A stretch of 38,535 nt of DNA from an uncultured archaeon (GCA_902386255.1 CABMII010000062.1:1-38535); one strand, 5' to 3'. Positions 7,601 to 38,535 are shown, counted from the stretch's first letter. The notes: generated from the sequence alone by a model not told the origin. Program-made: numbers and translations.

Positions 7601-10600
7601 TTATTCATCAGCCACCGTCTCTCGCCTCAGCGTGAATAACTCCTTTAACTGCGCAGTCGTCATCTCGGTCAGCCATCCTTCCCCAGTTCCGATGATATTT
7701 TCGGCAAGCTCTTTCTTTACCTCTATCATCTCATCTATCCTTTCTTCAAGCGTCCCGTCGCAAATGAACTTGTGCACCTGCACGTTCTTTGTCTGCCCTA
7801 TGCGAAAAGCCCGGTCTGTAGCCTGGTTCTCAACAGCGGGATTCCACCATCTGTCAAAATGGAACACATGGTTTGCACGTGTGAGATTTAGACCCACGCC
7901 ACCCGCCTTGAGGGAAAGGATGAATATCCTGGGACCATTCTTTTCCGAGAATCGCATGACCATCTGATCTCTTTGCTTCTGGGACACCCCTCCGTGTAAA
8001 AAGAGCACTTCCTGCCCCAAAACCTTCTGGAAATGAGCTTTGAGCATACCCCCCATCTCGGCAAACTGCGTAAAGATAAGAACAGAATCATCCTCGGCAA
8101 GTACTTCTTCAAGCATCTCCGTTATGCGGTTCAACTTACCTGAGCGTTCGGGTAGAGAGGAACCATCGCCAAGGAATTGCGCCGGATGATTGCACACCTG
8201 CTTGAGCCTCATAAGGGCAGAAAGCACCGCGCCTTTTCGTTCTATTCCCTCGGATTCTTCAATTTTTCTTAGCATATCCTTGACAACCGCTTCGTATAGC
8301 GTTGCCTGCTCCTTTGTGAGGTTGTAGTGTTCCTTCATCTCGATCTTATCAGGCAGGTCTTTTATGATGGAAGAATCTGTCTTCAGGCGGCGAAGAACAA
8401 AGGGTGTAACGATGCTGCGCAGGCGCATACCTGCTTCTTTATCATTATAACGCTCAATTGGTAGCGCAAATGTCCTCCTGAATCCTGCGGCAGAGCCAAG
8501 ATAACCCGGATTCAGGAACTCCATGATAGACCACAATTCGCTCAGGCGGTTCTCAACAGGCGTTCCTGTAAGAGCGATGCGGTATCCGGCTTTTATCCTT
8601 CTTACTGCCTGGGATTGTTTGGTTGACGAATTTTTGATGCTTTGCGCTTCATCAAGAACCACGCCATTCCATTCCACATTCGCCAAGACATCTTCATCCC
8701 TGTGAGTAAGCGCATAGGTGCTGATGACGAGATCGTAATTATGAACTTCTTTAAGGAACTCTTTCTTCCTGCGGTTGATGCCGTGATGAAGAAGAACACG
8801 AAGCGAGGGGGCAAACTTCATTGCTTCTCTTTGCCAGTTTCCGACTACCGAGGTCGGACATATAAGCAGGACAGGCAGGTCATTACCTTCTTCTTTATCT
8901 TTTAATAACAGAGCAAGCAGCTGTATGGTCTTTCCAAGCCCCATATCATCGGCAAGACATGCACCAAGCCCGTACTGCCGCAAAAATGCAAGCCATGAGA
9001 AACCTTTCACCTGATACGGGCGAAGTCCCCCCACAAAGCTGTCAGGCTGCTGAATTTGTTTTATTCCTTTGCGTCCCGATAATTGCTCGAACAGGGAAGA
9101 CAGACTTCCTTTTGCCTCAAACCCAACGATCGAAAGACCTGTTTCTGACTTGCCCTGACCAATACTGAGCTTCATGGCTTCACTCAGCTTCATTTCGCCG
9201 GAATTTTTTGACCTGAAGAATTTTATCGCTGCATCAATTTCATCTTTTTTCAGTTCCACCCACTGTCCTCTTATACGAACAAGAGGCTCTTTGAGGCTTG
9301 AAAGACGCTCAAATTCCTCTTCACTTATTGCCTCACCTCCAAGTGCAAGCTGCCAGTTGTAACTTATTATTGAATCAAAAGTAAATATCCCCTTTCCGGT
9401 CTTTGGCTCACGCTTTGGTTTTACGTTCAATTTAATACCAAGCTGCGTTTTTGCCGCGCCTTTGTTCCACCAGGGGGGAATGAGCACGCCAAAGCCGCTT
9501 TCGGAGAGCAGGGACGCCGCCTCTTTTAAGAATATATAAGCCTGCCGGGTTCCAAGTTTTGCATCTTCAGGTCTTGCGGTGTTTAAGCTTTCTTCTATCG
9601 GGGGGAATAAACGCGAGGCTTTTCCGAGATCTGCAAGCAGCTTTTCCTGCGGGTGGTCGAATTTCCGTGTCAGGAATGAAAGAGTGTCCCGTGATTCCCT
9701 CCACACATCCCCTGCCGGAACAAGAAGGCTCGGATCATCCGATGCCTGGAGGAAATAGCGAAGGTTCCAGCTATCATCCGCCTCCGCTGCAGGCGGTTCG
9801 AGGCGAAAACATGTGCGAAATCCTGATCTCTCTATTTCGTGTATCGGTTCGCTCCATGATTTTAGTTCTTCCGGGAGATTTTTTAGCCAATGGGCCTTGG
9901 TTCTTATCGGTTCGCCTGTTGCAAGGGAATCTAACCATGCCGATGAGAGACCTGACGTCTTTGTTTTTATTTCAGAGATAGGTATCCATCTTCTGATGCA
10001 CCCATCCACAGCCGTATTCAGGAAATCAGATAATAACGCTTCGGGATAGTTTGAAAGCCCATTCTGGAGGATGGATCTGCAAATTGGCGGCATCCTTCCG
10101 GCAAGCATTGACATACGCGTCAAGTCGTCCTGGTCATTGAGCGCATACTGCCATCGGGCAAAGCTCTGGTCATTATTCTCTGAGACAACGAGTCCGGGAA
10201 CAAAATGTTGTTTTGATAGAAGTTCCATAGCGAACTTTGAGACTTTGCTCCAGAACCGAAAATCCGTGCCTATGGCAAAACCGTCAATTCCTGTCCAGAA
10301 ACCGGACAACATTGTGAGGAGCGACACGGCATCTTCCGGCGGAATGCTTAAACCGTCAATTTTCCATGCCGCCAGCCCGACTTTCTCGGTTCCGTTTTCG
10401 CTGTCATCTTCCCTTATCAGGTCAGGGGAAGCCTGCGGGGAATTTGAAATAGAGGGGAGCGTGATAAATACGCTATCATGGCGCGCCTTTTTAATGCCGC
10501 TGTTTGCAAAATCAAGCGCTGTAATAATTTTAAGAATATCACCCTGCGAAGCTTGGAATGGATGCGAACGCGGTACCCCTGCCCTGGGACGACCTCTACG

Positions 10601-10699
10601 TTTTACCTTGGGTGATGCTGAAGACTCACCCCATAAGAAGAAGTCTCCTCGCTCCTGTATCGCAGCAGCAGGTTTCCATGTTCCATGCAAGACTATCAT
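7601..10699 (-). CDS. SNF2-family DNA-dependent ATPase/helicase
   Basis: A large SWI2/SNF2-type DNA translocase. The C-terminal 450 residues hold the two RecA-like lobes: Walker A DDMGLGKTIQ near residue 588, motif II DEAQ (VVLDEAQSIKN), motif III LTGTPVENR, and motifs V-VI in GGVGLNLTRANHV ... DRAFRIGQTKNVQV. The preceding region (about 400-550, with NWQLALGGEAISEEEF and VRIRGQWVEL) is the SNF2-associated domain common in bacterial and archaeal members. The first 400 residues are poorly conserved. A TTG three codons earlier (10708) is possible; the ATG at 10699 is chosen as the more usual start, and neither has a strong ribosome site. It is coupled to the SWIM gene downstream. Length is about 1032 residues. 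Confidence 0.95.
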   Translation of the reverse strand: MIVLHGTWKPAAAIQERGDFFLWGESSASPKVKRRGRPRAGVPRSHPFQASQGDILKIITALDFANSGIKKARHDSVFITLPSISNSPQASPDLIREDDSENGTEKVGLAAWKIDGLSIPPEDAVSLLTMLSGFWTGIDGFAIGTDFRFWSKVSKFAMELLSKQHFVPGLVVSENNDQSFARWQYALNDQDDLTRMSMLAGRMPPICRSILQNGLSNYPEALLSDFLNTAVDGCIRRWIPISEIKTKTSGLSSAWLDSLATGEPIRTKAHWLKNLPEELKSWSEPIHEIERSGFRTCFRLEPPAAEADDSWNLRYFLQASDDPSLLVPAGDVWRESRDTLSFLTRKFDHPQEKLLADLGKASRLFPPIEESLNTARPEDAKLGTRQAYIFLKEAASLLSESGFGVLIPPWWNKGAAKTQLGIKLNVKPKREPKTGKGIFTFDSIISYNWQLALGGEAISEEEFERLSSLKEPLVRIRGQWVELKKDEIDAAIKFFRSKNSGEMKLSEAMKLSIGQGKSETGLSIVGFEAKGSLSSLFEQLSGRKGIKQIQQPDSFVGGLRPYQVKGFSWLAFLRQYGLGACLADDMGLGKTIQLLALLLKDKEEGNDLPVLLICPTSVVGNWQREAMKFAPSLRVLLHHGINRRKKEFLKEVHNYDLVISTYALTHRDEDVLANVEWNGVVLDEAQSIKNSSTKQSQAVRRIKAGYRIALTGTPVENRLSELWSIMEFLNPGYLGSAAGFRRTFALPIERYNDKEAGMRLRSIVTPFVLRRLKTDSSIIKDLPDKIEMKEHYNLTKEQATLYEAVVKDMLRKIEESEGIERKGAVLSALMRLKQVCNHPAQFLGDGSSLPERSGKLNRITEMLEEVLAEDDSVLIFTQFAEMGGMLKAHFQKVLGQEVLFLHGGVSQKQRDQMVMRFSEKNGPRIFILSLKAGGVGLNLTRANHVFHFDRWWNPAVENQATDRAFRIGQTKNVQVHKFICDGTLEERIDEMIEVKKELAENIIGTGEGWLTEMTTAQLKELFTLRRETVADE

Positions 10700-10857
10700 T
10701 GAAAACAAATCTTCTCTTTGGTTTATTGTAATAAATGTTTGTTTTTGTTTTCATTGTTCTGACATACCATGCTTCACCGGGATTCACCGCAAGCTCGATA
10801 AAAAAAGGATGCCATTTAAAGCAAAAGATTTGATGTTGTAATCCTATTTAACAGCCA

Positions 10858-11295
10858 ATGAAAGGAATATACGTTCTAATCCTCAGGATGAAAGAGAGCA
10901 GGGACATCCGCATAGGAAAACTCGGAAGGCTTCATTTCAGGAGAGGCTATTATTCTTACGTCGGCTCAGCCCAGGGCAGCGGAGGGGTCAAACGCGTAAC
11001 AAGACATTTCAGCGTAGCTCACGGCAGAAACACCACGAGAAAATGGCATATCGACTATCTCCTGCCGCACTCTGATGTAATTTGCGCGGTTTTTTCACCA
11101 ACTGATGATGCCATGGAGTGCGTTGTGGCAAAAATCCTCGGTGAATATTCAGAAGCCTTGCCCGGTTTTGGGTGCAGCGACTGTACCTGCGAATCGCATC
11201 TTTTCTTTACAGGTGGAAATATAATGGGCGATGCTTCTGACATCTGCGAAGGGGTTTCTGGAAACGAAAGTATCATTATTTACCCGAACATGTAG
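10858..11295 (+). CDS. DUF123 (GIY-YIG-like) family protein
   Basis: A 145-residue protein matching the DUF123 family, which is related to the GIY-YIG nuclease fold: GIYVLILRM at the N-terminus, RRGYYSYVGSAQGSGGVKRV, and the HWHID-like segment KWHIDYLL. Cysteine-rich GCSDCTCESHLFF near residues 109-121 is the usual end of the family core. Family members are stand-alone or fused to endonuclease III, suggesting a link with DNA repair, but activity is unproven. The ATG at 10858 has no Shine-Dalgarno site, so the message may be leaderless. argC follows 7 bases after the stop, so co-transcription is likely. Confidence 0.85.
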   Translation: MKGIYVLILRMKESRDIRIGKLGRLHFRRGYYSYVGSAQGSGGVKRVTRHFSVAHGRNTTRKWHIDYLLPHSDVICAVFSPTDDAMECVVAKILGEYSEALPGFGCSDCTCESHLFFTGGNIMGDASDICEGVSGNESIIIYPNM

Positions 11296-31624: not shown

Positions 31625-32059
31625 ATGGATGTCTATATCGAAGCAGCTATTGAAGAGGCGAAAAAGGGGTTGCATGAGGGGGGAATTCCAATCGGTTCCA
31701 TCCTTGTGAAGGATGGGAAGATTGTGGGGAGAGGGCATAACAGGCGCGTGCAGGATAATGACCCGGTAATGCATGCAGAAATTGATTGCCTGCGTAATGC
31801 AGGAAGAATTGGGAAATATAGCGGGACTGTTCTTTATTCCACATTGATGCCCTGTTATCTTTGCGCCGGGGCGGTTGTCCAGTTCGGGATTAAGAAAGTG
31901 ATTGTGGGAGAATCCGAGACTTTCAGAGGCGCGAGGGAATTTATGGAATCGCATGGCGTTCTGGTCATCGATTTGGACATTGATGAGTGCAAGCAATTGA
32001 TGAGGGAGTTTATTAAGAAATATCCTCAGGTGTGGAATGAGGATATAGGAAAACTTTGA
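31625..32059 (+). CDS. Cytosine-deaminase-like nucleoside/base deaminase
   Basis: A 144-residue zinc deaminase with the metal site HAEIDCL (H50, E52) and PCYLC (C77, C80). The C-terminus, EFIKKYPQVWNEDIGKL, matches the fungal cytosine deaminase FCY1 ending better than it does tRNA adenosine deaminases, so cytosine to uracil is the likely reaction; other bases cannot be excluded. It ends the membrane-protein operon. Its 3' half recurs twice downstream (37142-37413 and about 38276-38409), so this is the only complete copy. The ATG at 31625 follows GGGAAG. Confidence 0.9.
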   Translation: MDVYIEAAIEEAKKGLHEGGIPIGSILVKDGKIVGRGHNRRVQDNDPVMHAEIDCLRNAGRIGKYSGTVLYSTLMPCYLCAGAVVQFGIKKVIVGESETFRGAREFMESHGVLVIDLDIDECKQLMREFIKKYPQVWNEDIGKL

Positions 32060-32067
32060 GTGGTGGT
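31796..32067 (+). repeat. Deaminase 3'-end repeat, copy 1 (in intact gene)
   Basis: A 272-base segment of the deaminase gene from AATGCAGGAAGAATTGG to TTGAGTGGTGGT, which recurs at 37142-37413 with the same length and about 21 differences (about 92% identity), and in part at 38276-38409. The homology stops at the same point just past the gene's stop codon in all three copies. Confidence 0.9.
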
Positions 32068-32545: not shown

Positions 32546-33439
32546 CTAGTATCTCCTAGTTTTTCTTATTCTGCCAGTAAGGTATATCAGAAGTATGCCT
32601 GCCACCGCAATCGCTGCTTCGAATCCAGGTGACTTTGCTGTTGCCACAGGTTTGCCCTCTTCCACCAGTGGATAAGTCATAGGGGTATTATATTTCACTT
32701 CATTTAATTTTACTTTTTCAATGACATTCGTGCTAATTACAGTTTTTCCGCCCTCGATTGCCTTCACAGTAAAGCTATATTCCCGATTTCTTGGGATGTC
32801 GAAAGTCACCTTACTTCTTCTTCTCTCTGAGGCTTTTACTATTCCGATGTCATCACTTTTAGTATATTCAGTATAAGGATCTACCCGTGCCGTAACTTCT
32901 ATGGTCAATGGTCCAGAATCACCACCCTGATTATATATTCCGGGAGAAACATCCACAAGAGCGCCCGAACCATCGTTATAAATTTTTGTTACAACAAGAT
33001 TCAAATCCATCAGCTTTATGTCGGATGGTTGTCCGGGTACGGGTTTTTGTTTCACTGTTACAGGTAAGAAATTTTGAGCCCGGAGTTTTCCACCCTCGAA
33101 AACCTGAACTTCAACTCCATATTCACCTGGGTTTGCAACTGTAAGAGATATACTGTTGGAAGAAGATAGTCCGCTTTTGATGTATCCTATTTCTGAATCC
33201 TTTTCTGCAACGATGAGATTGGTCGATGGATCCCTAATTTTTATCTTGAGAGTAAGCATCCCTGTATCTACATTCAGATTATTCTGGACATAAGGTGTTA
33301 TTGTCAGCTTTGTCCCATCTTCCTGTGGTGATGACATCACGTCCACAGATGTTATCACTATATTGTCATATTCCCTGATACAGCCGCTAAAAATAATGCT
33401 GCTGAGTATTAAAATAAAAAATAAGAACCTGATTTCCAT
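32546..33439 (-). CDS. Lipoprotein with PGF-CTERM anchor (DUF7490-like)
   Basis: A 297-residue envelope protein. The N-terminus is a lipoprotein signal with lipobox IFSGC (Cys at about residue 20). Two beta-sandwich-like regions follow (ITSVDVMSSPQEDGTKLTI..., LNLVVTKIYNDGSGALVDV...). The C-terminus has SPGFEAAIAVAGILLIYL followed by a basic tail, the PGF-CTERM signal normally processed by archaeosortase A. So both ends carry membrane-anchoring signals. The resemblance to DUF7490 is from memory. It is the middle gene of a three-gene envelope operon. Confidence 0.8.
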   Translation of the reverse strand: MEIRFLFFILILSSIIFSGCIREYDNIVITSVDVMSSPQEDGTKLTITPYVQNNLNVDTGMLTLKIKIRDPSTNLIVAEKDSEIGYIKSGLSSSNSISLTVANPGEYGVEVQVFEGGKLRAQNFLPVTVKQKPVPGQPSDIKLMDLNLVVTKIYNDGSGALVDVSPGIYNQGGDSGPLTIEVTARVDPYTEYTKSDDIGIVKASERRRSKVTFDIPRNREYSFTVKAIEGGKTVISTNVIEKVKLNEVKYNTPMTYPLVEEGKPVATAKSPGFEAAIAVAGILLIYLTGRIRKTRRY

Positions 33440-33454
33440 TTTAATATCTTGCCT

Positions 33455-34249
33455 TTAAGTGAGTTTTACATTGAGCATCAGGGTCTTTGAATCTATGAGA
33501 TTATCGCCCATAAATAATTTCACATAGACAGGAGTTAGACCGTTGGGTGCATCTTTATTGATATTCAATACCAATGCTTCTGTATATGATGTGCCACCCA
33601 TTGCCATTGCTTCACCGATGATGAAACTATCACTGCCTCCAATTTCTTTGTTCTCTATCTCTACGACTACCTTGAGAGTGTTTTTATCAATGGTTGTATT
33701 TCCTTCATTTCTCACTGAGAATGTTACTGTGGCATTCTTCCCTTTTTCGAGCGTCCATGTATTCACTCCAGTCCCTCCTCCTCTTTTTTCATAGGATTCC
33801 ACAAAACCAACGAATTTTAGAGTCGCATTGGGAAGAACTGTTGTCTGCACTGGGACTGTTTTTGTGTTTATCACAGGGTTTCCTTTTTCATCTTTTCCTG
33901 AAGCATAAGATAAAGTCAATGTCGTTGTATTTGCAACCGACTTGAAACTCGGGGCTTGAATTTTTGCTGTGACAGTAACTGAGGACGCACCTTCGGTTGT
34001 CTTTCCAGGAATATTCACATTACCGCTTGAAAGCACATTTAAAGTATCAAATGAAGCCACATTAACATTATCAATAGCTTCAGTGGCATTATCAAGCACA
34101 TTCACTGATATTTCCTGTTCCTGGAACTCTTTTATTGTTATAGGTTTGATGCTCACTATAACATCATCTGGTTTCACAGGATTGATAGTCGATACACATC
34201 CCGAAATTAGGATTATTGAAATGATTATCAAACTGACTAATTTTTTCAT
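33455..34249 (-). CDS. Secreted lipoprotein, beta-rich
   Basis: A 264-residue lipoprotein starting MKKLVSLIIISIILISGCVS with the lipobox LISGC (Cys at residue 18), so it is anchored to the outside of the membrane by its N-terminus. The rest is beta-rich, with repeated TTEGASSVTVTAKIQAPS- and TWTLEKGKNATVTFSVRNEG-like segments, as in CARDB/adhesion-type beta-sandwich domains. The ATG at 34249 is chosen because GGTGGT lies just before it; a GTG five codons upstream extends the frame. It is the first gene of the envelope operon. The transposon at 34303 has landed just upstream of its promoter. Confidence 0.75.
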   Translation of the reverse strand: MKKLVSLIIISIILISGCVSTINPVKPDDVIVSIKPITIKEFQEQEISVNVLDNATEAIDNVNVASFDTLNVLSSGNVNIPGKTTEGASSVTVTAKIQAPSFKSVANTTTLTLSYASGKDEKGNPVINTKTVPVQTTVLPNATLKFVGFVESYEKRGGGTGVNTWTLEKGKNATVTFSVRNEGNTTIDKNTLKVVVEIENKEIGGSDSFIIGEAMAMGGTSYTEALVLNINKDAPNGLTPVYVKLFMGDNLIDSKTLMLNVKLT

Positions 34250-34280
34250 TATTACCACCGCCACTCAGAAGAACATCTCA

Positions 34281-34291
34281 ATATAAATAGA
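34281..34291 (-). promoter_or_regulatory. TATA box of the envelope operon
   Basis: The minus strand reads CTATTTATATT, 30-40 bases before the lipoprotein ATG. It lies only 12 bases inside from the transposon's left end, whose 8-bp target duplication begins at 34295. Confidence 0.5.
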
Positions 34292-34294
34292 TTA

Positions 34295-34302
34295 TGATTT
34301 AT
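34295..34302. repeat. Left 8-bp target-site duplication
   Basis: TGATTTAT immediately left of the transposon end GGTTCTG; an identical copy is at 37077-37084 right of the other end. Confidence 0.9.
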
Positions 34303-34353
34303 GGTTCTGTTAAGTCTGCGTGGGATATGAAAGGGTGTTAACTGTAGTGGGAT
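34303..34353 (+). repeat. Left terminal inverted repeat with two motif copies
   Basis: GGTTCTGTTAAG, 4 bases, CGTGGGAT (34319-34326), then GTTAAC (34337-34342), 4 bases, GTGGGAT (34347-34353). The GTTAAS-N4-(C)GTGGGAT unit appears twice, 28 bases apart, as expected for tandem transposase-binding sites. Confidence 0.85.
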
Positions 34354-34361
34354 GAAAAAAA

Positions 34362-35588
34362 TTATTTATTCGATTTTGAAGAGTTACAAGTCTTATGTGT
34401 TATTTGCGCATTTTTCAATTCGGTTTTTCCACCTTTACTATGAGGGACTATGTGGTCTAATGAATAATCTTCCCATTTTACTTCCTTACCACAAACACCA
34501 CATTTCTTTTCCTTTGATAACTCCCAAAATATCCTTCTTTCTTCATCATTAAAATCTCTTTTTGAGTCTTTTGCTACTAAATGAGGAATCAGAAGGCTTC
34601 TTAAAATTACAGTTTTCGTTCCCCTGCTTTCTTTATTTGCCCTTCTTGTCAGTTGTGCTTCATAATAACTCTGTACATTTGGGGCTGAGAAATCTTCTGT
34701 GCTAAGCTTTTCCGAGAATTTTTCTAAATCCGCTCTAATATTTTCGGCTCCTTCATCCGAGAAATGATAATTCTCAATTAAATCTGAGAAAGCAACGAAT
34801 AAACTATAATAACTCAATTTATCATGCCATCTTGTCGGTTTCAAATCTCCAACGATTTCATCTATTTTTGATTTAACTTTTAAAAATTTGTTTTTTATTG
34901 TATTTTTCTCATCGAACTTAACATCATAAACTCCATAGAATTTATCGATTAAATCTGGCTCTTTGGGTTGAATCCCATGCAAGAGTGCTATTAATAACTC
35001 ACTAACGAACTCTACATCAATCATTCGCCTTATTTCAGCGGCATTAACTATTCTTTGTTCTGCCCAGTACTCATCATCCGCTAATTCAGAAGCCAACTGG
35101 ATAAAATGACCTGTGAATGTTGCATTTCTAAGTTCTTGTCTTGTTAGAGGGACTGCATTCTTATTCAAACGCTGAAATACTGCCCTAATATCTGCATCAT
35201 TATTAGTTTTAAGTTCCCTTACAACTAATGCATAGTCCCATATTTCAGTCTTGATGCCGTCGGGTAATTGAGAAAATTCTTTGCCCCCATATTCTTGGCT
35301 ATCTTCTTCGAGTATCTCGAACTCCCCGTCCACATACTCTAATATTGACCGTATCCTCTGTTGACCATCAACAACAATATATTTGGTATTGCCGTCCTTA
35401 TCTGTCTTTATTTGCACGAATATTTCCGGTATCGGGAAACCACGCACAATCGTATCTATAAGATATGATTTGTTTTTTAAGCTCCAAACAGGCTTGCGTT
35501 GGAACGGTGGGTGAATTATAAGGCTACCCTCTTTGTTCCTTTGGTAGAACCAAGTTACTCTCTGGGTCGTTGGCGGTGAATTGTCCAT
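34362..35588 (-). CDS. DUF262-HNH (GmrSD-like) nuclease, transposon cargo
   Basis: A 408-residue protein. The N-terminal DUF262 domain shows FQRKPVW (29-35) and the catalytic-type DGQQR (74-78), which in GmrS-like proteins belongs to the nucleotide-using ParB-like fold. The C-terminal 48 residues are an HNH nuclease: CGVC (C363, C366), DHIVPHS (D378, H379, H383), then H398 and C401. DUF262 proteins with nuclease tails are found in type IV restriction and phage defence against modified DNA. Inside this transposon it would be cargo, perhaps protecting the host or helping the element persist. It ends 59 bases from the left end and starts at the ATG at 35588. The stretch from 35589 to 35662 holds no further gene. 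Confidence 0.88.
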   Translation of the reverse strand: MDNSPPTTQRVTWFYQRNKEGSLIIHPPFQRKPVWSLKNKSYLIDTIVRGFPIPEIFVQIKTDKDGNTKYIVVDGQQRIRSILEYVDGEFEILEEDSQEYGGKEFSQLPDGIKTEIWDYALVVRELKTNNDADIRAVFQRLNKNAVPLTRQELRNATFTGHFIQLASELADDEYWAEQRIVNAAEIRRMIDVEFVSELLIALLHGIQPKEPDLIDKFYGVYDVKFDEKNTIKNKFLKVKSKIDEIVGDLKPTRWHDKLSYYSLFVAFSDLIENYHFSDEGAENIRADLEKFSEKLSTEDFSAPNVQSYYEAQLTRRANKESRGTKTVILRSLLIPHLVAKDSKRDFNDEERRIFWELSKEKKCGVCGKEVKWEDYSLDHIVPHSKGGKTELKNAQITHKTCNSSKSNK

Positions 35589-35662
35589 AATCTCGCCGAA
35601 ATATTAGTGGCTTTGTTTAAATAGTCATCTTTTCATCAGAATCTTAACTTCTCACGAGAGCA

Positions 35663-35794
35663 TTATCGTTTTAAGCCACGTTGGATTAATTTTACAACCG
35701 CTTCATTATTATTTTTAAGTCCGTAGTCTATCCTAAATTTAAGTACTTCTTTCCAAAGGTCTTCATCAACATCGAGAATAAGCTTTTTTGCCAT
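35663..35794 (-). CDS. 43-residue ribbon-helix-helix regulator
   Basis: A 43-residue protein (MAKKLILDVDEDLWKEVLK ... NNNEAVVKLIQRGLKR) with a beta strand (KLILDVD), helix 1 (EDLWKEVLKFRIDYGL), turn (KNNN) and helix 2 (EAVVKLIQRGLKR), the pattern of CopG/Arc/MetJ-type dimeric repressors. It lies between the cargo gene and the transposase, divergent from the transposase, with 10-bp direct repeats just upstream of its ATG and of the transposase. It likely represses both its own promoter and the transposase. It could also be an antitoxin to an unidentified toxin, but no partner is seen. Confidence 0.75.
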   Translation of the reverse strand: MAKKLILDVDEDLWKEVLKFRIDYGLKNNNEAVVKLIQRGLKR

Positions 35795-35887
35795 TATTAA
35801 CACCTATTAATAACTATTAATGGAAAACTATTTAAAGTCTGTGGTCAATCTTATTAATAACAATTAATAACTATTAACAAAAAAGAG
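35795..35887. promoter_or_regulatory. Bidirectional promoter with 10-bp-spaced operators
   Basis: Between the regulator and transposase starts, two clusters of the word TATTAAYAAC repeat every 10 bases: TATTAACACC/TATTAATAAC/TATTAATGGA around 35795-35824, and TATTAATAAC/AATTAATAAC/TATTAACAAA around 35852-35881. The 15-base ATTAATAACTATTAA occurs exactly at 35806-35820 and 35863-35877. A TATA-like CTATTTAAAG at 35828-35837 lies between them and can read both ways. The 10-bp phase is what two or three ribbon-helix-helix dimers binding side by side need. Confidence 0.7.
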
Positions 35888-37069
35888 ATGATTAAAATGA
35901 TTACCGATACCGACATGCAAACCGTAGGCACAAGAGAGGATAGAGGAAAAGCAATAGCAGAAAAAGACGGTCAAATAATAAGAATTAATGACTACTCATA
36001 CAAGGTTAAATCGCAATCAAGTTATACTCTTTATGATATTATTTCAACTGAAATAGGCTGGAAATGCACATGCCCTGACCACACTTCCAGAGGGGTAAAA
36101 TGCAAACATATCTTTGCGGTTGAGTTTAGTTATGCGATACGCAAGCAGGTTGAAAAGGTAAGAATCGAGCCTATCACAACAATAAACCCGACAGCATGTA
36201 TCCTTTGTGGTTCTGCAAACATCGTAAAGGATGGATTAAGACATAACCAATATGGTGATATTCAGGTATTTTTTTGTAAAGACTGCTCACAACACTTTAC
36301 CTTAAATCTCGGATTTGAAAAAATGAAAGCCAGCCCGCAGACAATAACCACGGCAATGCAACTGTATTTCTCTGGGGAATCCTTGAGAAATGTAGCCAAG
36401 TCGTTAAGACTTTTGGGCGTGAAAGTTACGCATGTCGCAGTTTACAAATGGATTGAGAAATACACGCTTTTGATGGAGCAATACTTAGAGCAAATAAAAC
36501 CTCAAGTCTCTGATACTTGGCGAGCCGACGAGGTTTTTGTTAAATTCAGTGGTAATATGAAATATCTGTTTGCCTTAATGGACGATGAAACAAGGTTCTG
36601 GATAGCCCAAGAAGTTGCAGGTACAAAATACAAACATGATGCGAGAAGTCTTTTTGCTATGGGGAAGGAAGTTACAGGTAAAAGACCTAACGTCCTCATA
36701 ACTGATGGACTGCCAGCTTATCACGATGCCTTCAATAAGGAGTTTTATACACGCTCAAACCCCAAATCCAAGCACATCAACGCCATAAAACTGGATGGCG
36801 ATATGAATAATAACAAAATGGAGAGGATAAACGGAGAGATAAGAGATAGGGAAAAGGTCATGCGTGGATTAAAGAAGGATGATACGTCAATTCTTAGAGG
36901 TATGCAGATATACCACAATTTCATCAGGACACATGAAGGGCTTAATGGTAAAACACCTGCCGAAGCATGTGGAATAGAGGTAGTCGGAGAAAACAAGTGG
37001 ATAACCCTAATCCAGAATGCCAGCTATCCCACGCTGGTTAACAGTAGAATCCATCCCACGACATCTTAA
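35888..37069 (+). CDS. IS6-like DDE transposase with N-terminal SWIM finger
   Basis: A 393-residue transposase. Its N-terminal region contains a SWIM finger (C60-x-C62 ... C72-x-H74) and a second zinc site (C104, C107, C130, C133), followed by a helix-turn-helix (about 163-190). The DDE core fits IS6: WRADEVFVKFSGNMKYLFALMD with Asp214, LITDGLPAY with Asp273 and the NNKMERINGE motif with Glu312. Standard IS6 transposases are about 230-240 residues; the added SWIM and zinc modules make this one much longer. The frame opens at the ATG at 35888 (a second ATG follows three codons later) with no strong ribosome site. The stop at 37067-37069 lies within the right inverted repeat. Confidence 0.9.
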   Translation: MIKMITDTDMQTVGTREDRGKAIAEKDGQIIRINDYSYKVKSQSSYTLYDIISTEIGWKCTCPDHTSRGVKCKHIFAVEFSYAIRKQVEKVRIEPITTINPTACILCGSANIVKDGLRHNQYGDIQVFFCKDCSQHFTLNLGFEKMKASPQTITTAMQLYFSGESLRNVAKSLRLLGVKVTHVAVYKWIEKYTLLMEQYLEQIKPQVSDTWRADEVFVKFSGNMKYLFALMDDETRFWIAQEVAGTKYKHDARSLFAMGKEVTGKRPNVLITDGLPAYHDAFNKEFYTRSNPKSKHINAIKLDGDMNNNKMERINGEIRDREKVMRGLKKDDTSILRGMQIYHNFIRTHEGLNGKTPAEACGIEVVGENKWITLIQNASYPTLVNSRIHPTTS

Positions 37070-37076
37070 CAGAACC
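37026..37076 (-). repeat. Right terminal inverted repeat with two motif copies
   Basis: Read on the minus strand from 37076: GGTTCTGTTAAG, 4 bases, CGTGGGAT (37060-37053), then GTTAAC (37042-37037), 3 bases, CGTGGGAT (37033-37026). It mirrors the left end, with the two units 27 bases apart. Confidence 0.85.
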
Positions 37077-37084
37077 TGATTTAT
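37077..37084. repeat. Right 8-bp target-site duplication
   Basis: TGATTTAT directly after the right end of the transposon, identical to the copy at 34295-34302. Confidence 0.9.
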
Positions 37085-37141
37085 GGTGACTGTTTCAATT
37101 CATGTTGGTGAATAAAAATTACAATATATATTTTTCGTTGA

Positions 37142-37413
37142 AATGCAGGAAGAATTGGCAGATACAGCGATTCTATTCTTTATTCCACATTGATGCCCTG
37201 CTATCTTTGCGCCGGGGCGGTTGTCCAGTTCGGGATTAAGAAAGTGATTGCGGGAGAGTCCGAGACCTTCGCGGGCGCGAGAGAATTTATGGAATCGCAT
37301 GGTGTTCTTGTCGTCGATCTGGACATTGATGAGTGCAAGCAATTGATGAGGGAGTTTATTAGGAAATATCCTCAGGTGTGGAATGAGGATATCGGAAAAC
37401 TTTGAGTGGTGGT
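37142..37413 (+). pseudogene. Truncated deaminase copy 2
   Basis: A 272-base copy of the 3' half of the intact deaminase gene at 31625, about 92% identical with no insertions or deletions and the same stop (37403-37405). It keeps the zinc motif PCYLC but lacks the first 57 or so residues, including the catalytic HAE, so it cannot be active. Most differences are silent third-position changes, which suggests it diverged as part of a working gene before being truncated. It is not an exact repeat such as a fresh integration site. Confidence 0.9.
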
Positions 37414-37453
37414 ATATCAAAGAACTTATACGCTGGCAGGCTATTACAGATGC

Positions 37454-37624
37454 ATGGCTAAATTAGTTGATTCAATAGTCGGTACTGAAAAATATAGACC
37501 CAGTTGTTCTGTTTGTAATGGAAGGAAAAGGATAGACCTGAACGCTCCTAATGGTAGAGCTATCGGACACAATTGGACGACGTGTACCCAATGTGATGGA
37601 ACAGGTTACCAAAAACTGAATTAG
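37454..37624 (+). CDS. Small DnaJ-zinc-finger-like protein
   Basis: A 56-residue protein, MAKLVDSIVGTEKYRPSCSV..., with two Cys pairs: CSVCNGRKR and CTQCDGTGY. The second fits the CxxCxGxG repeat of DnaJ zinc domains, so it is a small two-knuckle zinc protein that may bind RNA or protein. The ATG at 37454 is preferred over the GTG at 37406, which lies within the tail of the deaminase repeat. No ribosome site is strong. Context gives no clear role. Confidence 0.65.
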   Translation: MAKLVDSIVGTEKYRPSCSVCNGRKRIDLNAPNGRAIGHNWTTCTQCDGTGYQKLN

Positions 37625-37655
37625 CTTAAAACTCTCTTTCAGTGACCATTACAAC

Positions 37656-37666
37656 AGTATATATAC
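37656..37666 (+). promoter_or_regulatory. TATA box of the TRAM gene
   Basis: AGTATATATAC at 37656-37666. If used, transcription would begin near 37690 and leave a leader of about 95 bases before the TTG at 37784. Confidence 0.5.
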
Positions 37667-37783
37667 AACAGGCTGCATTAGTATTTTGTCAGTTAGCTAT
37701 CAGGTAAGTTATAGAATCAGGGAATAATCCCATCTGTGTTTGCTTTTTTAGGTAGATTGATTAAATAAACAGAGGTTAAAACA

Positions 37784-37996
37784 TTGTTTACAGAACAAGA
37801 TAGAAATTCTCCAGTTTCAGAAGGCGGTGTCCACGATGTCACAATTGATGGCATTGCCAGAGAAGGAGATGGAATAGCACATATACAGGGTTTAGTGATT
37901 TTTGTGCCAGGCACGAAGGTCGGAGACCAGGTAACGATAAAGATTGAGCGGGTAATGCGAAAATTTGCAATTGCAGCGCTTGCAGAAAAGAATTAG
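37784..37996 (+). CDS. TRAM-domain RNA-binding protein
   Basis: A 70-residue stand-alone TRAM domain: GGVHDVTIDGIAREGDGIAHIQGLVIFVPG and GDQVTIKIERVMRKFAIAAL. Single-TRAM proteins are known in methanogens and act as RNA chaperones that can take the place of bacterial cold-shock proteins. It starts at TTG (37784) with AGAGGT seven bases ahead. The next gene, a zinc ribbon, follows 18 bases after its stop. The apparent 5' leader of about 95 bases could carry temperature control, as in cold-shock mRNAs. That is inference. Confidence 0.9.
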   Translation: MFTEQDRNSPVSEGGVHDVTIDGIAREGDGIAHIQGLVIFVPGTKVGDQVTIKIERVMRKFAIAALAEKN

Positions 37997-38014
37997 AAGA
38001 ACGGAGAGATATAC

Positions 38015-38215
38015 ATGGGTTTTGAAAGAAAAGATAACCGTGGCGGCGGTTTCAGACCAACAGGTCCGAGAGATATGCACATGGGTCCAAGAGAGATGTT
38101 CAAAGCAACTTGCGCGGACTGCAAACAGGAAACTGAAGTACCCTTTAAGCCATCAGGCGACAGACCGGTGTACTGCAGGGAATGTTACCAGAATCATAGA
38201 CCAAAGAGATTTTAA
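38015..38215 (+). CDS. Gly/Arg-rich zinc-ribbon protein
   Basis: A 66-residue protein with a Gly/Arg-rich start (MGFERKDNRGGGFRPTGPRD) and a C-terminal zinc ribbon: CADC, then CREC 18 residues later, ending NHRPKRF. It resembles the small CxxC-CxxC ribbon proteins of methanogens. With the TRAM gene 18 bases upstream it is probably co-transcribed and may bind RNA or the same ribonucleoprotein. A GGAG ribosome site precedes the ATG. A terminator follows directly. Confidence 0.85.
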   Translation: MGFERKDNRGGGFRPTGPRDMHMGPREMFKATCADCKQETEVPFKPSGDRPVYCRECYQNHRPKRF

Positions 38216-38223
38216 ATAACATA

Positions 38224-38254
38224 AGACGGGCGAGCTGCCCGCAGTCTTTTTTTT
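38224..38254 (+). terminator. Hairpin terminator after the TRAM operon
   Basis: GGGC pairs with GCCC around a GAGCT loop, extended by AGAC/GTCT with a small bulge, followed by a run of ten Ts at 38245-38254. Confidence 0.75.
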
Positions 38255-38275
38255 AGTATTTACCAATGGTTAGCC

Positions 38276-38409
38276 AGAGGTATTTAAGGAATCGCATGGG
38301 GTTCTGGTGGTCGATTTGAACATTGATGAGTGCAAGCAAGTGATAAGGGATTTATAGGGAAATATCCTCAGGTGTGGAATGAGGATATCGGAAAACTTTG
38401 AGTGGTGGT
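38276..38409 (+). pseudogene. Deaminase copy 3, decayed fragment
   Basis: About 134 bases matching the last part of the deaminase gene, from GGAATCGCATGG (38288-38299) to TTTGAGTGGTGGT, with extra substitutions and small deletions that break the frame (GGATTTATAGGG). It shares ATATCGG and the ending GGTGGTA with copy 2, so it is closer to that copy than to the intact gene. The remaining bases to the window end (38410-38535) hold no gene that I can see. Confidence 0.85.
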
Positions 38410-38535
38410 AAAACCGGAGTTTATAAGAAATCATCAAAATCAAATAGCAGCGCTAAGTAAACTGTGGGTCTAACAAAATCTTTATTCAGTTGGGAATGAA
38501 TGTTCCAAGCTGAAGTTTGCCAAAAATTTCCGCCG

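What the first reader, a model, noticed from the sequence alone, without database searches (positions are those of the whole stretch)
34303..37076. Complete IS6-like transposon with restriction-like cargo
The 12-bp inverted ends GGTTCTGTTAAG and the perfect 8-bp duplication TGATTTAT prove a transposition event. IS6 elements are normally about 0.8 kb with a single transposase; here the same kind of ends enclose 2.77 kb with a DUF262-HNH nuclease gene and a regulator. If this is a family rather than a one-off, it is a mobile defence (or self-maintenance) unit moved by an IS6 transposase.
Basis: partly seen in the sequence, partly recalled or inferred. Interest (0 to 1): 0.85.

Follow-up and report, generated by a model that had tools for sequence, protein, structure and literature searches.

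The report
Archaeal IS6-like transposon carrying swappable genes
This is one intact member of an apparently undescribed, archaea-wide family of small jumping elements that share a jumping enzyme and end sequences but nearly always carry different passenger genes (here a DNA-cutting, restriction-like enzyme), so it may be one way archaea pass accessory and defence genes around.

Summary
Confirmed and extended. Window 34303-37076 is a 2774-bp element with inverted ends and a perfect 8-bp target duplication. It encodes a 393-aa SWIM/zinc-ribbon IS6-type transposase, a divergent 46-aa putative regulator and a DUF262-HNH protein. It is neither a one-off nor a fixed defence unit. I delimited 47 relatives with ends of the same kind (46 with an exact 8- or 9-bp duplication) in Methanoperedens, Methanoregula, Methanosarcinales, Bathyarchaeota, Thaumarchaeota and Thermoplasmata. 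They are 2.3-5.4 kb long; no cargo-free copy was found. Pairs with 80% or more transposase identity share cargo in 1 of 9 cases. DUF262-HNH occurs only here, but restriction-modification genes recur in 7 others and in a transposase-less copy in the same genome. Two features look new: each end carries two direct copies of an element-specific box, and a small regulator gene, often beside repeated operator-like sequence, lies divergent from the transposase in about 34 of 48. Published archaeal IS6 members are bare 0.7-0.85 kb elements; one (bacterial) IS6 element with a passenger gene is listed. Verdict: new variant of a known kind, an IS6-type unit transposon with exchangeable, partly defensive cargo. 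Defence function and transposition route are inferred.

The parts
34295..34302 (.). Left copy of the 8-bp target-site duplication TGATTTAT
   Evidence: Identical to 37077-37084
34303..34326 (+). Left terminal inverted repeat and first box (TGTTAA...GTGGGAT)
   Evidence: Inverted match to 37053-37076, 12/12 outermost, 83% over 24 nt
34335..34353 (+). Left second box, direct repeat of the first (GTGTTAACTGTAGTGGGAT), 28 nt further in
   Evidence: Element-specific half-box repeated within ends, 73 of 96 ends against 19% for other elements' boxes
34362..35588 (-). Cargo: DUF262 (GmrSD_N) - HNH protein, 408 aa, DGQQR and HNH motifs intact
   Evidence: Pfam GmrSD_N 5.1e-24, HNH 1.9e-10; PADLOC NsnA 5.7e-42; alignment
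35663..35803 (-). 46-aa ORF, putative ribbon-helix-helix regulator, divergent from the transposase
   Evidence: Position conserved in about 34 of 48 elements; no Pfam hit, fold assigned by eye only
35794..35884 (.). Repeated ATTAATAACTATTAA-type sites between the divergent genes, possible operators
   Evidence: Two 34-nt copies at 82% identity (D2); repeat score z = 5.7 against dinucleotide shuffles
35888..37069 (+). SWIM / zinc-ribbon / IS6-type DDE transposase, 393 aa
   Evidence: DDE_Tnp_IS240 7e-15, NCBIfam transpos_IS6 9e-34 but below cut-off; D214, D273, E312 and zinc ligands conserved in 62 relatives; model pLDDT 82.6, best fold match a DDE transposase
37026..37044 (-). Right second box, direct repeat of the first (CTGTTAACCAGCGTGGGAT)
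37053..37076 (-). Right terminal inverted repeat and first box
37077..37084 (.). Right copy of the target-site duplication TGATTTAT

Best explanation
An intact, single-copy member of an archaeal family of cargo-bearing unit transposons moved by a SWIM/zinc-ribbon IS6-type DDE transposase. Shown: the enzyme is encoded between bipartite ends (two direct copies of an element-specific box at each end), and the whole unit, cargo included, is bounded by an 8-bp target duplication; across the family the transposase and ends persist while the cargo is replaced. Inferred: the transposase binds both boxes at each end, cuts the target with an 8-9 bp stagger and inserts the unit, either as a cointegrate resolved by host recombination (the IS26 model) or directly. 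Inferred: the small divergent protein binds the repeated ATTAATA-type sites between the two promoters and represses both transposase and cargo, so that expression is highest just after entry into a new cell. Inferred: the DUF262-HNH cargo is an NTP-dependent nuclease of the type IV restriction kind that attacks foreign or modified DNA, which gives the host a reason to keep the element.
For: Ends and duplication. 46 elements delimited by one criterion, 45 of 92 loci against 2 of 2275 decoys, lengths 2332-5424 bp. No bare copies, although the method finds bare bacterial IS6. Cargo exchanged while transposase is kept. Bipartite ends: 73 of 96 ends and 49 pattern hits in 22 of 31 congeners, none for the reversed control. 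Divergent regulator and repeats. Intact catalytic and zinc residues. R-M genes recur as cargo, also in a transposase-less copy in the same genome.
Against: No second copy of this exact element and no clean empty site, so recent movement of this unit as a whole is shown only by its own duplication. The transposase is just under the NCBIfam IS6 cut-off and also weakly matches IS1. The regulator's fold has no profile support. Defence by DUF262-HNH is by homology only; its fold match to BrxU is weak. Enrichment of defence cargo over background was not tested.
Confidence: 0.75

Rival explanations
1. The element is a transposon as described, but the DUF262-HNH protein serves the transposon rather than host defence: it destroys rival elements or element-free DNA, or aids transposition, and so works as a maintenance function.
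For: The HNH domain resembles those of Cas9d and IscB, nucleases tied to mobile elements; the gene is headed by a small DNA-binding-type ORF as in addiction modules, and 11 of 34 such ORFs in the family match MazE/AbrB.
Against: It is in only 1 of 48 elements, so the family does not need it; the same slot holds R-M genes and unrelated proteins elsewhere; DUF262 relatives outside the element have no transposase next to them in the stretches examined.
Confidence: 0.15
2. The transposase is not an IS6 enzyme but belongs nearer to IS1/IS1595, a group in which elements with passenger genes are already known; the finding would then be less unusual.
For: NCBIfam IS1 model 2.7e-14, IS1/IS1595 zinc-binding domain 7.8e-05, IS6 model below its cut-off, duplications of 8 or 9 bp.
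Against: The IS6 model is far stronger (9e-34, full length) and Pfam gives the IS240/IS6 DDE domain above its cut-off, with no IS1595 hit; ends begin GG-TTCTGTT as in IS1216; archaeal IS6 members with 9-bp duplications exist (PMC6807381).
Confidence: 0.12
3. A one-off: an ordinary short IS6 element whose end was displaced, trapping neighbouring host genes between the ends.
For: Single copy in its genome; no other element has DUF262-HNH.
Against: All 48 delimited elements carry cargo and none is bare; both ends are complete bipartite ends.
Confidence: 0.03

Closest known systems
IS6/IS26 family insertion sequences, including archaeal ISfinder members (PMC7986276, PMC6807381)
   Same: IS6/IS240-type DDE domain, ends starting GG with TTCTGTT, 8-bp (sometimes 9-bp) target duplications
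   Different: Published archaeal members are 696-853 bp with 211-237 aa transposases; here 2.3-5.4 kb, 393 aa with SWIM and zinc ribbon, two-box ends, regulator and cargo
ISDsp3 (Dehalococcoides), the only IS6 element with a passenger gene named in the 2021 review
   Same: One IS6-type transposase plus passenger between ends with an 8-bp duplication
   Different: 1456 bp, 319-aa transposase without an intact zinc finger, one hypothetical passenger, bacterial, single copy
Long clostridial IS6 elements (clades h/i, or VII/VIII)
   Same: N-terminal zinc finger, in clade VIII a further N-terminal extension
   Different: 1.2-1.8 kb, no passenger genes described; whether the extension is a SWIM domain was not tested
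IS1595-type elements with passenger genes (tIS; from general knowledge)
   Same: Zinc-binding N-terminus, DDE enzyme, passenger genes between single-IS ends
   Different: No IS1595 profile hit for this transposase
Tn7-like transposons with defence cargo (PMC8649781)
   Same: Several transposase-binding sites at each end, variable cargo including defence genes
   Different: One transposase gene instead of tnsABC plus target selectors, small size, 8-9 bp duplication, archaea
GmrSD/BrxU type IV restriction enzymes (cargo protein)
   Same: N-terminal DUF262 with DGQQR motif and C-terminal HNH nuclease; weak model hits to BrxU and ParB folds
   Different: 408 aa, HNH of PF01844 type, no GmrD domain and no partner gene; best archaeal homologue found 41% identical

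Membership tests
IS6 family | IS6-type DDE transposase | tested here: inconclusive
   Pfam DDE_Tnp_IS240 above cut-off (55.8 against 27 bits); NCBIfam transpos_IS6 full-length 9e-34 but 116.9 against 125 bits
IS6 family | Ends beginning GG with a cTGTt motif | tested here: met
   GGTTCTGTTAAG, and GG or GA ends across the family
IS6 family | 8-bp target duplication | tested here: met
   TGATTTAT here; relatives 8 or 9 bp
IS6 family | Short element (about 0.7-0.9 kb, up to 1.8 kb) with the transposase as its gene | tested here: not met
   2774 bp here, 2332-5424 bp in relatives, always with cargo
IS6 family | Replicative cointegrate transposition | not testable with these tools
   Needs a transposition assay
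Transporter IS (tIS): IS-type transposon with passenger genes | Passenger genes unrelated to transposition between the ends, with one duplication around the whole | tested here: met
Transporter IS (tIS): IS-type transposon with passenger genes | Related IS without passenger genes exists | tested here: not met
   No bare copy found for this transposase clade
IS1/IS1595 | IS1 or IS1595 transposase profile above its cut-off | tested here: not met
   IS1 model 53.6 against 100 bits; no IS1595 model hit
Tn7-like transposons | tnsABC-type gene set | tested here: not met
   One transposase gene, no tns genes in the element
GmrSD type IV restriction enzymes (cargo) | GmrS (DUF262) domain | tested here: met
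   GmrSD_N 5.1e-24
GmrSD type IV restriction enzymes (cargo) | GmrD (DUF1524) domain | tested here: not met
   HNH of PF01844 type instead; no GmrD hit
NsnA-containing defence system (PADLOC) | NsnA together with its partner genes | tested here: not met
   NsnA profile 5.7e-42 over residues 11-295, but the only neighbouring cargo ORF is the 46-aa one

The most novel reading that the evidence does not exclude
A previously undescribed, archaea-wide class of regulated unit transposons: a SWIM/zinc-ribbon IS6-type transposase acting on two-box, element-specific ends; a swappable repressor (AbrB, RHH or zinc ribbon) with its own operators controlling transposase and cargo together; and cargo, often R-M or other conflict genes, exchanged much faster than the transposase diverges, with transposase-less derivatives mobilised in trans. 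It would be a substantial vehicle for defence and accessory genes in Thaumarchaeota, Bathyarchaeota and Methanoperedens.
Probability: 0.5. Interest if true: 0.8.

Novelty: new variant of a known kind. Interest (0 to 1): 0.68.

Why it matters
IS6-type transposases are known for moving genes only indirectly, through cointegrates and recombination between two IS copies, and a 2019 survey of thaumarchaeal mobile elements listed composite transposons with passenger genes among the classes not detected in archaea (PMC6563490). The elements here suggest an IS6-type enzyme moving cargo as a unit in several archaeal phyla, including ammonia oxidisers and anaerobic methane oxidisers. The defined ends give a way to find new archaeal accessory and defence genes, because what lies between two such ends is likely to be mobile cargo. 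The two-box ends and the swappable regulator also make specific, testable predictions about how the transposase recognises DNA and is controlled.

Tried and rejected
Same cargo in other copies: rejected; DUF262-HNH is in 1 of 112 cargo ORFs, there is no close homologue in the order, and the best one elsewhere in the phylum is 41% identical with no transposase beside it in the stretch held. Bare relatives: none; the one hint (L171, a possible internal end giving 1558 bp) matches only 11/14 and lacks a duplication. Clean empty site: the left flank continues uninterrupted in G064 (86%), but the right flank is different DNA. Archaeal short IS6-like relatives (about 26% identity) as a length control: no convincing ends found, so bacterial IS1216 copies and an Enterobacter IS6 were used. 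Rfam: nothing in 33000-38535. Cargo gain through internal extra ends: internal end-like sites were seen in only three elements, so no support. Solved-structure search with the 46-aa ORF gave only designed repeat proteins. Literature searches for SWIM transposases, Methanoperedens transposons with R-M genes and archaeal IS6 with cargo found no prior description; subscription journals, preprints and ISfinder itself were not searchable, so the novelty claim is limited by that.

Full report
OBSERVATION. GGTTCTGTTAAG starts at 34303 and its complement ends at 37076; the inverted match extends over 24 nt at 83%. TGATTTAT stands on both sides (34295-34302 and 37077-37084). Inside are a 408-aa DUF262 (GmrSD_N) - HNH protein (-), a 46-aa ORF (-) and a 393-aa transposase (+). 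There is one copy in the genome. The genome belongs to the Methanoperedens group: same-genus matches correspond in contig length and position to records titled Candidatus Methanoperedens, and the contig carries ordinary chromosomal genes.

TRANSPOSASE. It has a weak SWIM zinc finger match (below Pfam's cut-off), an IS1/IS1595-like zinc ribbon and an IS6/IS240-type DDE domain. In 62 aligned transposases the zinc ribbon cysteines, D214 and E312 are invariant; the SWIM ligands (C60, C62, C72, H74) and D273 are conserved in at least 90%. The AlphaFold model (pLDDT 82.6) matches a DDE transposase first, then retroviral integrases and TnsB. It falls just under the NCBIfam IS6 cut-off (116.9 against 125 bits), so 'IS6-like' is the right word.

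FAMILY. I searched 186 genomes of the order, then a collection of 84,980 prokaryote species and IMG/VR. With one criterion (end repeat of at least 10/14 and an exact 8- or 9-bp duplication) 46 elements were delimited, the window included; in the matched test 45 of 92 loci passed, against 2 of 2275 decoy pairings of left and right flanks. L051 (one mismatch in the end motif, exact duplication) and L043 (perfect 24-nt ends, no duplication) were added, giving 48 with the window. Of 45 loci without delimited ends, 32 have the transposase near the end of the DNA held. Hosts are Methanoperedens, Methanoregula, other Methanosarcinales, Bathyarchaeota, Thaumarchaeota and Thermoplasmata, with undelimited copies in Asgard archaea. 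A few records are labelled bacterial, possibly mis-binned contigs. The transposase tree follows host phylum closely: 6 label changes against 26 for shuffled labels.

ALWAYS WITH CARGO. Lengths are 2332 to 5424 bp, median about 3.3 kb. At least 262 bp lie upstream of the transposase in every case, and 39 of 48 have more than 250 bp on both sides. A search for ends closer than 2 kb around the transposase found only weak, chance-like pairs, while the same kind of search returned 808-809 bp for three of four bacterial IS6 copies. So this clade has no visible bare IS form.

CARGO IS EXCHANGED. DNA similarity between elements is almost always limited to the transposase. Of 9 element pairs with at least 80% transposase identity only one shares any other ORF, a 48% identical regulator; of 43 pairs at 70-80%, four do. 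DUF262-HNH occurs only in the window element. Type I, II or IIG methyltransferase or R-M genes occur in L044, L047, L052, L144, L149 (D12 methylase plus HNH), L153 (methylase-Mrr fusion) and L169. Others carry AbiV HEPN, Fic, NYN, NurA, ClpP-like or proteasome-like proteins, and many carry small unknown proteins. Thus 8 of 48 have R-M or restriction-like nucleases; whether that is above background was not tested.

ENDS. Each end carries the box twice in direct orientation. In the window element TGTTAA..GTGGGAT recurs 28 nt inside. The second half of the box differs between elements (GTGGGAT, GAGTGGT, CGTTTGCT, CGTCGGA, CGAGACC and others) but is repeated within each: the own half-box is recovered at 6/8 or better in 73 of 96 ends, against 19% with other elements' boxes, mostly at offsets 26-28 or 34-37, a difference of about one helical turn. 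A bipartite pattern gave 49 hits in 22 of 31 congeners and none for the reversed control.

REGULATOR. In about 34 of 48 elements a 45-110 aa ORF lies directly upstream of and divergent from the transposase; a few of these ORFs may be spurious. Eleven of 34 match MazE/AbrB, others look like RHH or zinc ribbon proteins, so the same position is filled by different folds. The stretch between it and the transposase is rich in repeats in 23 of 36 elements (z > 2; window z = 5.7), for example TTAGGTACCTAA, ATCCGTACGGAT or TCGTACGA copies. I infer that the small protein represses both promoters; this is not shown.

TRANSPOSASE-LESS COPIES. Searches with two elements turned up lone ends. Two short elements with perfect 8-bp duplications and no transposase exist: L234 (767 bp) and L247 (874 bp, with the window-type GTGGGAT box). 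In the window's own genome, contig C14 (L232 947-3760) has a pair of somewhat decayed ends around a C5 methylase, an NgoFVII-type restriction enzyme and a Vsr protein, without transposase and with only a partial duplication. This suggests movement in trans. The same genome holds a second, distant, complete cargo-bearing member on C64 (L013 1252-4380, duplication CCAAATGT).

SPREAD. L174 and L172 from IMG/VR sit near tail genes, and L174 also near a reverse transcriptase and clamp-loader genes, so viruses or proviruses may carry them.

CARGO ENZYME. DUF262-HNH has intact DGQQR and HNH motifs. PADLOC gives NsnA and PD-T4-2 profiles. Its model (pLDDT 79, pTM 0.59) gives only weak hits, to ParB folds and the type IV enzyme BrxU. 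It lacks the GmrD domain and a partner gene, so I do not file it as GmrSD or as the NsnA system, though it may work like them. Restriction of foreign DNA seems most likely; a maintenance role for the transposon is the main rival.

KNOWN OR NEW. The IS6 review names one passenger-carrying member, bacterial ISDsp3 (PMC7986276); tabulated archaeal members are 696-853 bp with 211-237 aa transposases (PMC6807381); a thaumarchaeal survey listed passenger-carrying composite transposons among classes not detected in archaea (PMC6563490). I found no earlier description, within an open-access library only. I file it as a new variant of a known kind.

Noticed in passing
L232 947-3760 (own genome, contig C14 about 8446-11259): Transposase-less pair of family-type ends around a complete-looking type II R-M set (C5 methylase, NgoFVII-type restriction enzyme, Vsr); ends somewhat decayed and only a partial target duplication.
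   Followed up: partly
L013 1252-4380 (own genome, contig C64): Second, distant (about 36% transposase identity) complete cargo-bearing member with an exact 8-bp duplication CCAAATGT and different cargo.
   Followed up: partly
L011 about 1482-2900 (own genome, contig C81): Relic with one family-type end, a 212-aa ORF and a transposase remnant.
   Followed up: no
window 37085-37130: Right flank of the insertion is a short sequence (ACTGTTTCAATTCATGTTGGTGAATAAAAATTAC) that recurs in many congeners as 28-39 bp matches, perhaps the end of another small mobile element.
   Followed up: partly
window 31796-32067, 37142-37413, 38282-38410: The 3' part of a deaminase-like gene (31625-32059) is present three times in the window at about 90-92% identity.
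   Followed up: no
L234 957-1723 and L247 4666-5539: Short transposase-less elements (767 and 874 bp) with perfect 8-bp duplications.
   Followed up: partly
L236 636-3259 (G048): Family-type ends about 2.6 kb apart around an 814-aa helicase - RNase H protein, no transposase and no visible duplication.
   Followed up: no
L102, L114, L144, L146, L172 (elements): Proteasome-like or ClpP-like proteins recur as cargo, some only by weak profile matches; function unexplained.
   Followed up: no
L172 and L174 (IMG/VR contigs): Elements inserted near phage-like tail genes; L174 also near a reverse transcriptase and clamp-loader genes, suggesting viruses or proviruses as carriers.
   Followed up: partly
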